DNA from: Acidimicrobiaceae bacterium
Lineage (GTDB): Bacteria; Actinomycetota; Acidimicrobiia; Acidimicrobiales; RAAP-2
Direction: 5' to 3'
Length of the DNA stretch: 41,336 nt
Assembly (NCBI GenBank): GCA_947455165.1
Contig: CANGMP010000008.1
Coordinates: 1 to 41,336 of the forward strand
The notes under the pieces: generated by a model
What the model saw: only the letters and a program-made list of their open reading frames with translations
Told to the model about the DNA's origin: nothing
The model's database searches: none
In this document: positions 35,420 through 39,687 of the stretch, in pieces
Position numbering within the stretch: position 1 is the stretch's first letter
How the letters are laid out: each line of letters begins with the position of its first letter
Program-made: the position numbers and the translations under genes

Positions 35420-35883
35420 AACGACTCGCCCGGCCCGATCACGGTCACCTCGCTCGTTCGGCGAAACGGTGCCAGCACCAGCTTGGTCACGAGCGAGCTG
35501 AGAACGAGCAATCCGGCCTGCAGGGCCCCAAGCCCAACCCAGCCCAGTACGACGTAGCCGGTCGCCAAGAGAAACCCGCCAATGATTCCGTGCTTAGTGC
35601 TCAGGAGAAAACCCACGTAGGTCGGCACGACGTTGAAAAGTGCCGCCACCAGCGGTGCGGTGAATGATGTGCCCACCCGTCGGCGAATTCCAAGAATGAC
35701 GCCCAGTGCGATGGTGGACCAAAACCAAACCTGTTCGGCGCGAGTGATGTGCGAGCTAAAGACGTGACCAGTGCGGACCATCAGACCCCAGCAGACGGCC
35801 TGAATAGTGGCCCAGAGGAAAATGACGCCGCCGGCTGGTCCGCGGGTCTGCTCGCGCACTCGAAAAACAACTGAATTTGCCAT
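35416..35883 (-). CDS. Small polytopic membrane protein, 155 aa
   Basis: I recognise no family. From ATG 35883 there are about four hydrophobic segments (near 18-36, 53-68, 75-95 and 100-135) and a short C-terminal tail ending VIGPGESF. The frame is open 23 codons upstream, but TATGTT lies 6 nt before ATG 35883, suggesting a leaderless start there. It is divergent from the S51-like gene. A role in transport or lipid handling cannot be claimed from sequence. Confidence 0.7.
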   Translation of the reverse strand: MANSVVFRVREQTRGPAGGVIFLWATIQAVCWGLMVRTGHVFSSHITRAEQVWFWSTIALGVILGIRRRVGTSFTAPLVAALFNVVPTYVGFLLSTKHGIIGGFLLATGYVVLGWVGLGALQAGLLVLSSLVTKLVLAPFRRTSEVTVIGPGESF

Positions 35884-35889
35884 ACTCGC

Positions 35890-35895
35890 AACATA
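35890..35895 (-). promoter_or_regulatory. -10 box of the membrane protein gene
   Basis: TATGTT on the minus strand, 6 nt (GCGAGT) before ATG 35883, with no SD. Confidence 0.5.
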
Positions 35896-35933
35896 CACAG
35901 CCGGCAATTCTTTCGAGTGGCAGCTTTGACCGG

Positions 35934-35939
35934 TACGCT
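35934..35939 (+). promoter_or_regulatory. -10 box of the S51-like gene
   Basis: TACGCT, 6 nt (CGCCAC), then GTG 35946. It supports the downstream start over ATG 35877. Confidence 0.5.
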
Positions 35940-35945
35940 CGCCAC

Positions 35946-37043
35946 GTGACAAGCATCCTCGCCATCCTCGGCTCTGGCGAAACGGCGCCCAACATGGTCA
36001 AGGTTCACCGCGAACTTTTTGGCCACCTCGACTCGGTGCGGGCCATCATGCTCGACACGCCCTACGGCTTTCAGGAGAACATTCCCCAGCTCACCGAAAA
36101 GACGGTGACTTACTTTTCAACGTCGCTCCACGTCGACGTCGCCCCGGCGCCTTTCCACCGTTTTGAGTCATCGTCTGAACTCGAGCGAACCACATTTCTT
36201 CAGAGCGTTCGTGACGCTAACTACGTCTTTGCCGGTCCCGGGAGTCCGAGCTACGCCCTCGCCCAATGGTCGCCGCTCTCCCTCGGCAACGAGCTTCGGC
36301 ACGTCTTGGCCAACGGCGTGGTCTGTTTTTCCTCAGCCGCAGCCCTCACACTCGGTGCGTTCACGGCCCCCATCTACGAGATCTATAAAGTCGGCGCCCC
36401 GCTCTCGTGGCTACCCGGTCTTGACGTCTTGGGCGCCGTCGGACTGCGTGCCGCCATCATTCCTCACTACGACAACGCCGAAGGTGGCAACCACGACACG
36501 CGCTTTTGTTACATGGGTGCAACACGCCTCGACAAGCTCGAAGCAATGCTGGATGACGACGTCGCCATTTTCGGCGTGGACGAACACACGGCCGCCATCT
36601 TTGACCTCGAAGCTGACACGCTGAGCGTTCAGGGTCGTGGCGGGGCTTACTGGAGAACTCGTACCGGCGTGATTGCGGTCGCCAATGGCACCACGGTGCC
36701 TCTCAGCGAACTCCGTAACGCACCGCTCGATCCACTTCCGATTCAGCCCGTGGTCCAAGAGAGTCGTGAACTCTCGCCCGCCGAACTCGGTGAGCTCGTG
36801 GCGGCCGGGACGGCCGATTCGCTCGACGCCCTCGCCCGCCTCGTCGCCCTCGCCACCACGGGTGGACCGGGCCGTGTTGACCCCACCCCACTCGTTGATG
36901 CCGTCCTCGAAGCGCGAGCCGCGGCCCGCAAGGCCGGCCAATACGAACTCAGCGACCAGTTGCGTGACGCCGTGACCAGTCTTGGTATCGAAGTGAGTGA
37001 CAGCCCCGCGGGAGCGACGTGGCGTTTCCGGGACGATAACTAA
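35946..37043 (+). CDS. S51-like (class I glutaminase-fold) protein with CysRS-like C-terminal tail
   Basis: In this 365-residue protein, residues 1-260 resemble the peptidase S51/cyanophycinase, class I glutamine amidotransferase-like fold: ILAILGSGETAPN, VRAIMLDTPYGFQEN, VFAGPGSPSYAL, then VVCFSSAAALTLGAF at the nucleophile elbow (Ser129 or Ser130) and PHYDNAEGGNHDTRFC with H174. Residues 316-360 (VLEARAAARKAGQYELSDQL, then GIEVSDSPAGATWR) look like the extreme C-terminus of cysteinyl-tRNA synthetase. An ungapped match to this window's own CysS tail has 15 of 40 identical. Activity and ligand are unknown. GTG start with a -10 box 6 nt upstream. Confidence 0.8.
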   Translation: MTSILAILGSGETAPNMVKVHRELFGHLDSVRAIMLDTPYGFQENIPQLTEKTVTYFSTSLHVDVAPAPFHRFESSSELERTTFLQSVRDANYVFAGPGSPSYALAQWSPLSLGNELRHVLANGVVCFSSAAALTLGAFTAPIYEIYKVGAPLSWLPGLDVLGAVGLRAAIIPHYDNAEGGNHDTRFCYMGATRLDKLEAMLDDDVAIFGVDEHTAAIFDLEADTLSVQGRGGAYWRTRTGVIAVANGTTVPLSELRNAPLDPLPIQPVVQESRELSPAELGELVAAGTADSLDALARLVALATTGGPGRVDPTPLVDAVLEARAAARKAGQYELSDQLRDAVTSLGIEVSDSPAGATWRFRDDN

Positions 37044-37669: not shown

Positions 37670-38259
37670 TGACAGACCGCGTCGTTCTCGTTGGGGCCGA
37701 ATCGACTGGCACCACCACGCTCACGCGGGAGCTCTGCGAGATGTATCGCGCTCGAGGTGGAGAGTTCGCAAACACTCAGTGGGTGCGAGAGTTCGGGCGC
37801 GACATGTCCTTTATCAAATTGGATCGCGCTCGGGCAATCGACCCCGCCGCCGACATGGACACGTTGGTGTGGACCGACGATGATTTCATTGAGATCGCGC
37901 GAGAGCAAAATCGCATCGAAGATGAGGCCGCTGCCTTGACCGGTCCACTCCTGCTCTGCGACACCGATGCGTGGGCCACGGTCATCTGGCAGGAGCGGTA
38001 CATGGGCCATCGCACGCGCGATGTCGAAGCACTCGCGCAGCACGCACCAAGAGCTCTCTACATCCTCACGACCGATGAAGGCGTGGCCTTCGAGGCCGAT
38101 GAAATCCGCGATGGCGAGCACCTCCGTCACGCCATGACGAACCGCTTTCGCGAATGCCTAGAGGAGCAGGCGACGCCCTTCATTGAGGTTTCGGGTCTCA
38201 ACCGCGCCGCTCGCGTGGCGGCGGCCGTTGCGGCGATTGACGGAGTACTAGGCGTCTAG
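37669..38259 (+). CDS. NadR-kinase-like P-loop protein with altered Walker A
   Basis: This 196-residue protein starts VTDRVVLVGAESTGTTTLTR, closely like the ribosylnicotinamide kinase domain of NadR (GxESxGKxxL), but the Walker A lysine is Thr15. FANTQWVREFGRDMS, FIEIAREQNRIEDEAA and LLCDTDAWATVIW match the NadR-type kinase core (Walker B-like LLCDTDA). NadR kinases phosphorylate nicotinamide riboside; this may be a different nucleotide enzyme. GTG 37669 overlaps the methyltransferase TAG; an upstream in-frame ATG would lie inside that gene. The 3' end overlaps the convergent unknown gene by 12 nt. Confidence 0.78.
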   Translation: MTDRVVLVGAESTGTTTLTRELCEMYRARGGEFANTQWVREFGRDMSFIKLDRARAIDPAADMDTLVWTDDDFIEIAREQNRIEDEAAALTGPLLLCDTDAWATVIWQERYMGHRTRDVEALAQHAPRALYILTTDEGVAFEADEIRDGEHLRHAMTNRFRECLEEQATPFIEVSGLNRAARVAAAVAAIDGVLGV

Positions 38260-38904
38260 TTCGACGTAGTGCACAACTCGCTGGTACGAGTTGCCCAGTT
38301 CGTCTTGGAGGATGCAGGCAATGTTCTCGTCGCCCGTGCCGAGCTGCAGCGTCGTGGCCGGATCGGCATCAATCACAAAACTCCAACCTTTCGGCAGGGC
38401 CAAGCGACTCCCGAGGGTCGCGAGTGACTCCACCGTCTGCGTCGGGTCCACGTAGTGGGCGTACGCCTGGAGCAGGTAGCGGGTTCCATCGGGCGCGTGG
38501 AGGTAGTAGCGGGGCTCGTGGGCCGCAAACTCCCAAAAATTGTCGCGGCTGACGTACCGCTCGGTGTAGTCAATGCGTGAGGGCAGTTCGTCACCAAAGT
38601 CAATCGTGGCCGCCAAGAACATGGTCAACTCACCAAACGTCTTCACCGGGGCGGTCGCCCGCATACCGGCTTCGAGGGCATCGAAGGTCCAAAAACGCGG
38701 ACCGTTCTTGAAAACGAAAAGCGCACCGTGCTCCTTGGTGACTTCGTCGCCGTCGATGGCGTTAAAGAGTTCGGGCGGGCAGTCGTTGAAGCCCATTGTG
38801 TTCCAGACTTCCGCAAAGTAGCCATTCTCTCCCTGCTTAATGAAGAGCAGTTCGCCGTAGCGAACGTTGCGGAGATTCTCGAGGCGGGCGTACTTGGAAG
38901 ACAT
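38248..38904 (-). CDS. Hypothetical protein, 218 aa
   Basis: No family recognised. The protein is soluble, rich in aromatic and acidic residues, and begins MSSKYARLENLRNVRYGELL. Visible features are VWNTMGFNDCPPELFNAI, a GPRFWTFDALEAGMR segment, RYVSRDNFWEFAAHEPRYYL and LPKGWSFVIDADPATTLQLG. The end (IACILQDELGNSYQRVVHYV) looks like beta strands. It might be a small ligand-binding or enzyme-like beta protein. AAAGGA with a 5-nt spacer fixes ATG 38904. It is divergent from the CADD-like gene 89 nt away and overlaps the kinase gene by 12 nt. Confidence 0.7.
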   Translation of the reverse strand: MSSKYARLENLRNVRYGELLFIKQGENGYFAEVWNTMGFNDCPPELFNAIDGDEVTKEHGALFVFKNGPRFWTFDALEAGMRATAPVKTFGELTMFLAATIDFGDELPSRIDYTERYVSRDNFWEFAAHEPRYYLHAPDGTRYLLQAYAHYVDPTQTVESLATLGSRLALPKGWSFVIDADPATTLQLGTGDENIACILQDELGNSYQRVVHYVELDA

Positions 38905-38981
38905 GTGGATCCTTTGCAGTCGGAACTATTGACACAACTTATGCCAAATCTAACGTCCGCGCAAACATCCCAATTTCCCGC

Positions 38982-38993: not shown

Positions 38994-39632
38994 ATGACGA
39001 ACACCGTTACCTCAATCCTCGACCGCGCTCTCGAAGGCCGTCGACTGCTCGAACACCCCTTCTATCAGCGCTGGGAAGCCGGCGAACTGAAGGAAGGTGA
39101 ACTGCGTCAGTACGCCGAGCAGTACCGCTACTTCGAAGCCAACCTGCCACTCTTCTTGAGTGAGTTGGCCAGTCGCATGCCGGCCGGTGTCGCTCAGGCT
39201 GCTGTCGCCGACAACCTGCGTGATGAAGTTGCCGCCCCTTCGCACCTCGACCTGTTCGAAGCATTCGCGCAGGCCTTTGGTGCAACCGATGCACCGATCT
39301 CGCCCGCCATGCAGGCACTCGTTAGTGAGTACCAGACGCTCTTGAACGAGAGTGACGTAGCTGCTATCGCCGGTCTCCTCGCCTACGAAGCCCAGGGTGC
39401 CGCGATCGCCGACTCGAAGGCCGATGGCCTCCGCCGCCACTACGGTGCCGACGCCAACGCCACGAAGTTCTGGGACGTTCACGGCAGCATCGAAGCCGAC
39501 CACGCTGCTTGGACCGTTGAGGGCCTCGAGTCGCTGGAGGGTGACGCTGAAGTCATCTCCCTTGGCGCCCGCCGCATCGCCGACGCCTGGTGGAACTTCT
39601 TGACCGAGCGCGAAGAACTCGCCGCTGCCTAA
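38994..39632 (+). CDS. CADD/TenA-like haem-oxygenase-fold diiron protein
   Basis: This 212-residue all-helical protein resembles Chlamydia CADD and Nitrosomonas NE1434, the self-sacrificing p-aminobenzoate (pABA) synthases. LLEHPFYQRWEAGELKEGEL aligns well with the CADD N-terminus as I remember it. Probable metal ligands are E78, H84, E132, H163, E167 and H170 (DEVAAPSH, AYEAQG and HxxxExxH). Residues equivalent to CADD Tyr27, Tyr141 and Lys152 appear kept as Y24, Y131 and K142. If so it could make pABA for folate without pabABC. PqqC, TenA or another HDO function is the alternative. It is monocistronic, with a leaderless promoter and a strong terminator. Confidence 0.8.
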   Translation: MTNTVTSILDRALEGRRLLEHPFYQRWEAGELKEGELRQYAEQYRYFEANLPLFLSELASRMPAGVAQAAVADNLRDEVAAPSHLDLFEAFAQAFGATDAPISPAMQALVSEYQTLLNESDVAAIAGLLAYEAQGAAIADSKADGLRRHYGADANATKFWDVHGSIEADHAAWTVEGLESLEGDAEVISLGARRIADAWWNFLTEREELAAA

Positions 39633-39643
39633 CACTGAACGCC

Positions 39644-39687
39644 AAGAGCCCCGTCGACCCTGTGGTCGGCGGGGCTCTTTTCTTTTC
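39644..39687 (+). terminator. Strong intrinsic terminator after the CADD-like gene
   Basis: AAGAGCCCCG pairs with CGGGGCTCTT, extended inward to a 16-bp stem with one G-U pair and a 4-nt loop (CTGT). The T-rich tail TTTCTTTTC follows. It insulates the next small gene. Confidence 0.95.

What the first reader, a model, noticed from the sequence alone, without database searches (positions are those of the whole stretch)
38994..39632. CADD-like protein in an actinobacterium: candidate self-sacrificing pABA synthase
The sequence shows HPFYQRWEAGEL, DEVAAPSH, AYEAQG, a lysine ten residues later and HxxxExxH. From memory of Chlamydia CADD, these line up with Tyr27, the E/H ligand pair, Tyr141/Glu142, Lys152 and HxxxDxxH. 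CADD makes p-aminobenzoate from its own tyrosine with a diiron or Fe/Mn site. An E in place of D at the third carboxylate is a small deviation. If true, this organism may make folate precursor without PabA/PabB/PabC. The gene is stand-alone with its own promoter and terminator.
Basis: partly seen in the sequence, partly recalled or inferred. Interest (0 to 1): 0.68.

Follow-up and report, generated by a model that had tools for sequence, protein, structure and literature searches.

The report
Self-sacrificing vitamin-precursor enzyme in Acidimicrobiales
This gene very probably makes p-aminobenzoate, a building block of folate, by consuming two of its own amino acids, and it belongs to a large, apparently undescribed branch of such single-use enzymes in soil, bog and lake actinobacteria whose genomes mostly lack the textbook pabB gene.

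Summary
Window 38994-39632 encodes a 212-aa heme-oxygenase-like dimetal protein whose closest solved structure is CADD. All six metal ligands, the sacrificial Tyr (Y24) and Lys (K142), the essential Y40 and the helper Y44 align with CADD and NePabS. These residues are invariant in 87 distinct relatives and are lost together in HDO proteins outside the pABA group. The genome has folE, folP, folB and folK. Its only chorismate-binding enzymes are TrpE and isochorismate synthase, and its only class IV aminotransferase is IlvE, so PabB and PabC are not found. Of 29 carrier genomes in the order, 2 have PabB, against roughly 175-180 of 368 non-carriers. New here: a lineage-wide subfamily below the NCBIfam CADD cut-off, in which the relay Trp (CADD W92/NePabS W99) is Phe or Leu and a Trp stands at the CADD F171 position; none of 32 other signature-bearing proteins has this pairing. 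Main caveats: several relatives in the same genus have neither route; the genome is 89.5% complete; nothing has been assayed.

The parts
38994..39632 (+). CDS, 212 aa, CADD-like HDO, proposed self-sacrificing pABA synthase
   Evidence: Pfam Haem_oxygenas_2 5.4e-18; TIGR04305 123.7 bits (cut-off 200)
39063..39065 (+). codon of Y24, equivalent to sacrificial CADD Tyr27 / NePabS Tyr25
   Evidence: Y in 87/87
39111..39113 (+). codon of Y40, equivalent to essential NePabS Tyr41
39417..39419 (+). codon of K142, equivalent to amino donor CADD Lys152 / NePabS Lys159
   Evidence: K in 87/87
39225..39245 (+). metal ligands E78 and H84 (spacing one residue shorter than CADD)
39387..39389 (+). codon of metal ligand E132 (preceded by Y131 = CADD Y141, NePabS F148)
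39480..39503 (+). metal ligands H163, E167, H170 (CADD H174, D178, H181)
39255..39257 (+). codon of F88, where every other Y/K-signature protein read has Trp (CADD W92, NePabS W99)
39471..39473 (+). codon of W160, family-specific Trp where other signature proteins have Phe (CADD F171)
39644..39679 (+). intrinsic terminator, 16-pair stem followed by T-rich tail
38929..38956 (+). possible promoter TTGACA-N16-TAACGT in the divergent intergenic stretch (weak)
   Evidence: read by eye; not found by the scan

Best explanation
The protein is a self-sacrificing p-aminobenzoate synthase of the CADD/NePabS kind. A dimetal site (E78, H84, E132, H163, E167, H170) activates O2. Oxidising equivalents travel through aromatic residues to Y24, whose side chain is cut off the backbone to become the pABA ring, and K142 gives its nitrogen. 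Each protein molecule probably works once. It feeds FolP in a genome that has the pterin branch of folate synthesis but no PabB/PabC. Shown here: homology, fold, invariance of the catalytic and sacrificial residues, presence of folE/P/B/K, absence of PabB/PabC from the assembly, and near-exclusion of PabB across the order. Inferred: the chemistry, single turnover, and the metals used. From the NePabS mutants, Y131 together with F159 suggests an enzyme that works with Fe/Fe or Mn/Fe.
For: Closest solved relatives by sequence are CADD and NePabS and by model CADD. Y24, W27, Y40, Y44, K142, E132, H163 and H170 are invariant in 87 distinct family sequences. The Y-W-Y-Y-K set is present in every CADD-type group and lost as a block in a separate actinobacterial HDO group (L-F-F-Y-L/I) and in BesC (L-Y-L-C-I). 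Y25, Y41 and K159 were shown to be essential in NePabS and Y45 important (PMC11965152). Genome: only TrpE and isochorismate synthase, only IlvE, folE/P/B/K above curated cut-offs. Order-wide: PabB in 2 of 29 carriers against about 178 of 368 non-carriers, Fisher p about 4e-6 without phylogenetic correction. In 22 other signature-positive actinobacterial genomes none has a second TrpE/PabB match; 6 of 12 with only the signature-lacking HDO do.
Against: No assay. NePabS W99, whose change to Phe lowers activity, is naturally Phe here. The TIGR04305 score is below its cut-off. Five genomes of the same genus (96-97% complete) and others in the order have neither PabB nor this gene, so absence of PabB is not specific to carriers. 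Two carriers (G073, G116) also have a PabB-PabC fusion. No folate genes lie near any of 109 loci. The own genome is only 89.5% complete.
Confidence: 0.86

Rival explanations
1. The family kept the CADD fold and residues but now performs another dimetal oxidation on a small-molecule substrate (for example an N-oxygenation or C-C cleavage like HrmI or BesC); the organism takes up pABA.
For: Relay Trp (W92/W99) replaced by Phe, with the F88/W160 pair also seen in BesC; genus mates without either route must get pABA elsewhere; no folate neighbours.
Against: Y24 and K142 are not metal ligands, are lost in other HDOs examined, and yet are invariant in 87 distinct family members; strong negative association with PabB.
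Confidence: 0.1
2. A TenA- or PqqC-type enzyme (thiamin salvage or PQQ synthesis) that resembles CADD only by fold.
For: Pfam TENA_THI-4 is a second, weaker hit; TenA and PqqC structures also match the model (Z 20-23).
Against: CADD is clearly first by sequence and structure; full 3-His/3-carboxylate set present; the PqqC equivalog model did not match the window protein.
Confidence: 0.02
3. A real pABA synthase that is only a back-up: the genome has PabB/PabC in its unassembled tenth.
For: Completeness 89.5%; two relatives carry both (G073, G116).
Against: Eight other carriers of the same genus at 94-97% completeness also lack PabB, and seven of the eight have a single class IV aminotransferase.
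Confidence: 0.05

Closest known systems
NePabS (NE1434), Nitrosomonas europaea self-sacrificing pABA synthase, PDB 9pj4
   Same: Y25, Y41, Y45, K159 and all six ligands conserved; F177 equals F159 here; gene not clustered with other folate synthesis genes
   Different: F148 is Y131 here; W99 is F88 here; Phe at position 160 is Trp here; third carboxylate D against E
CADD (CT610), Chlamydia trachomatis, PDB 1RCW/8VA9
   Same: fold (Z 29.5, rmsd 1.4, 29% identity), Y27, Y43, Y47, Y141, K152 and ligands conserved
   Different: Y170 is F159, W92 is F88, F171 is W160; CADD sits with folate genes; E-H spacing one residue longer
TIGR04305 CADD-family and near-family proteins of other Actinomycetota (L224-L247)
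   Same: complete Y-W-Y-Y-K signature and ligands; the 17 of their genomes that were searched show no PabB
   Different: score 169-281 bits against 124 here; all have W88/F160, none F88/W160
BesC (4-chloro-allylglycine synthase), PDB 7TWA
   Same: HDO fold and ligands; shares the F88/W160 pair
   Different: lacks both sacrificial residues (Leu, Ile) and Y40/Y44

Membership tests
Self-sacrificing pABA synthase (CADD/NePabS kind) | Sacrificial Tyr (CADD Y27) conserved | tested here: met
   Y24
Self-sacrificing pABA synthase (CADD/NePabS kind) | Amino-donor Lys (CADD K152) conserved | tested here: met
   K142
Self-sacrificing pABA synthase (CADD/NePabS kind) | Essential Tyr (NePabS Y41) and helper Tyr (Y45) conserved | tested here: met
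   Y40 and Y44 invariant; roles from PMC11965152
Self-sacrificing pABA synthase (CADD/NePabS kind) | Three His and three carboxylate ligands | tested here: met
   E78, H84, E132, H163, E167, H170
Self-sacrificing pABA synthase (CADD/NePabS kind) | Helper Trp (CADD W92/NePabS W99); supportive, not reported as essential, so not treated as defining | tested here: not met
   F88 here; F 84, L 3 of 87 distinct sequences, with Trp at 160 instead
Self-sacrificing pABA synthase (CADD/NePabS kind) | Makes pABA from its own residues and rescues a pab mutant | not testable with these tools
   needs bench work
NCBIfam TIGR04305 fol_rel_CADD (formal model) | Score at or above curated cut-off of 200 bits | tested here: not met
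   123.7 bits, best NCBIfam hit, E 7.8e-36
HDO superfamily (Haem_oxygenas_2) | Pfam PF14518 above gathering score and heme-oxygenase-like fold | tested here: met
   65.9 bits against 28.9; model pLDDT 97.4
PqqC / TenA | Closest relatives by sequence and structure are PqqC or TenA | tested here: not met
   CADD first; no TIGR02111 hit

The most novel reading that the evidence does not exclude
Probability: 0.35. Interest if true: 0.65.

Novelty: new variant of a known kind. Interest (0 to 1): 0.52.

Why it matters
It extends single-use pABA synthesis to a large, mostly uncultured actinobacterial lineage (bog, permafrost, lake, acid sites) and would explain how many genomes without pabB/pabC make folate. 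It also offers natural experiments on an unsolved mechanism: a different set of aromatic residues between the metal site and the sacrificed tyrosine, and a Tyr/Phe pair beside the metals that in NePabS decides between Fe/Fe and Mn/Fe. Gene callers that look only for pabABC, or use TIGR04305 at its cut-off, would call these organisms pABA-dependent.

Tried and rejected
Gene-neighbourhood linkage: no folate gene in the flanks of 109 loci, and no neighbour shared by most loci, so context gives no support. E/D change and shortened E-H spacing: considered as possible loss of metal binding, rejected because both vary within the family. Tree: FastTree places the family next to five TIGR04305-like proteins (support 0.999), but a few signature-lacking long-branch proteins (L263, L267, L268) fall beside CADD/NePabS with weak support, so the tree does not prove that all signature carriers form one clade. 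PabB absence as proof of function: weakened, since genus mates lack both routes. The 1e-80 limit separating PabB from TrpE was checked directly on only part of the genomes; a few hits between 1e-75 and 1e-83 are uncertain, none in a carrier. Fisher tests ignore relatedness; in the one family searched exhaustively (17 genomes: 9 carriers, 3 with PabB, no overlap) the test alone gives p 0.08. Defence library: no match. Literature: no held paper found that links this enzyme to Acidimicrobiales; the library lacks most subscription journals, including the main CADD mechanism papers.

Full report
Observation. Every quoted motif is there. Pfam assigns Haem_oxygenas_2 (PF14518, 65.9 bits, cut-off 28.9) and more weakly TENA_THI-4. 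The best NCBIfam hit is TIGR04305, 'CADD family putative folate metabolism protein', at 123.7 bits, below its curated cut-off of 200. Among solved structures the best sequence matches are CADD (E 1.4e-19) and NePabS (E 2.2e-19), then BesC (5.4e-8). A strong terminator follows the gene at 39644-39679. A divergent gene without a Pfam match lies upstream. A TTGACA-N16-TAACGT promoter is plausible by eye but did not pass the scan.

Residue test. CADD cuts the side chain off Tyr27 and takes nitrogen from Lys152 (PMC13108848). In NePabS the equivalents Tyr25 and Lys159 plus Tyr41 are essential, and Tyr45 and Trp99 help (PMC11965152). The window protein has Y24, K142, Y40 and Y44 in those places. I collected relatives from the same order and from a genome collection: 107 full-length rows, 87 distinct sequences after removing copies of the same gene drawn from two collections, 39-85% identical to the window protein over the core. 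Y24, W27, Y40, Y44, Y131, E132, K142, F159, W160, H163, H170 and W173 are the same in all 87; the third carboxylate is E in 57 and D in 30; the first E-H spacing is six in 27 and seven in 60. As a control I read other HDO proteins from the phylum. All groups scoring near TIGR04305, including very divergent ones (f92/f100), keep Y-W-Y-Y-K, while a separate group (f77) has L-F-F-Y-L/I and BesC has L-Y-L-C-I, although both keep the metal ligands. Since Y24 and K142 are not ligands, their joint conservation is what a self-sacrificing pABA synthase predicts.

Structure. AlphaFold2 with 76 family sequences gives mean pLDDT 97.4, pTM 0.92. Foldseek ranks CADD first (2e-11, next group about 1e-5). VIA-align gives CADD Z 29.5, rmsd 1.4 over 205 residues, then HrmI 25.0, PqqC 23.3, UndA 22.5, TenA 22.2. 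Fold alone does not show function.

Genome context. The window lies in a 1.54 Mb, 94-contig assembly, 89.5% complete. Named near relatives of the protein (82% identical) come from Acidimicrobiaceae and Actinomycetota metagenome assemblies, and most of the rest from Acidimicrobiales, so the order is most likely Acidimicrobiales (inference). The genome has folE, folP, folB and folK together on contig C7, each above its NCBIfam cut-off. It has exactly two chorismate-binding enzymes: TrpE and an isochorismate synthase (TIGR00543 above cut-off). Its only class IV aminotransferase is IlvE (TIGR01122, 417.8 bits against 245.6). So PabB and PabC are not found. PabA was not examined, since the glutaminase is commonly shared with TrpG (established knowledge).

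Distribution. In 397 genomes of the order, 29 carry a full-length family member, plus one split copy. A PabB profile made from this order finds PabB at E <= 1e-80 in about 180 genomes, of which 2 are carriers (G073 and G116, both PabB-PabC fusions); the weaker hits in carriers G110 and G193 fall in the TrpE range, and G110 was confirmed to have only TrpE and isochorismate synthase. Fisher p is about 4e-6, uncorrected for relatedness. In 22 genomes elsewhere in the phylum with a Y-W-Y-Y-K protein there is never more than one TrpE/PabB match, while 6 of 12 genomes with only the signature-lacking HDO have two. In family f45, searched completely, 9 of 17 carry the gene, 3 others have PabB, none has both. 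Of 23 carriers checked, 16 have one class IV aminotransferase only, whereas most PabB genomes have a second one next to or fused with PabB. The pattern fits replacement. It is not proof: five genomes of the window's own genus, 96-97% complete, have neither gene, and at least one of them (G074) has FolP. They may import pABA or use something unknown.

What is new. No held paper mentions this enzyme in Acidimicrobiales; Stone et al. list Chloroflexi, Sphingomonas, Nitrosomonas, Wolbachia and Rickettsia. The subfamily is missed by TIGR04305 at its cut-off. It also differs in aromatic residues: position 88 (CADD W92, NePabS W99) is Phe in 84 and Leu in 3 of 87 distinct members, and position 160 (CADD F171) is Trp in all 87; all 32 other signature-bearing proteins read, CADD and NePabS included, have W88/F160. 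In NePabS changing W99 to Phe lowers pABA formation. Either this enzyme uses another path, with W160 as the likeliest candidate, or it is slower, or it does something else. The first is the reading I would test. Y131 with F159 corresponds to the NePabS F148Y variant, which works with Fe/Fe and Mn/Fe alike; that gives a metal prediction.

Verdict. It works like CADD and NePabS and meets every residue criterion shown to be essential, failing only the helper Trp and the formal score cut-off. Chemistry, metals and single turnover are inferred.

Noticed in passing
genomes G074, G142, G256, G326, G390 (same genus as the window): 96-97% complete genomes with neither PabB nor the CADD-like gene; FolP confirmed in G074. 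Possible pABA uptake or an unknown third route.
   Followed up: partly
L250, L251, L254-L256 (families f92/f100, same phylum): Divergent proteins with the full Y-W-Y-Y-K signature but Ile/Val before the ligand Glu and a much shortened first E-H loop; their five genomes show no second TrpE/PabB match.
   Followed up: partly
L080, L081 and many hits with open frames near 600 aa: PabB-PabC fusion proteins appear common in this order.
   Followed up: no
L267, L268 (genomes G421, G435): A second HDO paralogue lacking the sacrificial Tyr and Lys sits in genomes that also have a true CADD-type protein.
   Followed up: no
window 35877-37043 (+): 388-aa ORF whose last 50 residues match the cysteinyl-tRNA ligase anticodon-binding domain (CysS_C) while the first 337 have no Pfam match; an unusual combination.
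   Followed up: no
window 38248-38904 (-): 218-aa protein without any Pfam match, divergent from the CADD-like gene; a similar gene lies near it in about six related loci.
   Followed up: no
L116, L136, L150, L157: Family members on contigs filed under Acidobacteria, Saccharibacteria and Schlesneria, possibly misbinned or mislabelled.
   Followed up: no
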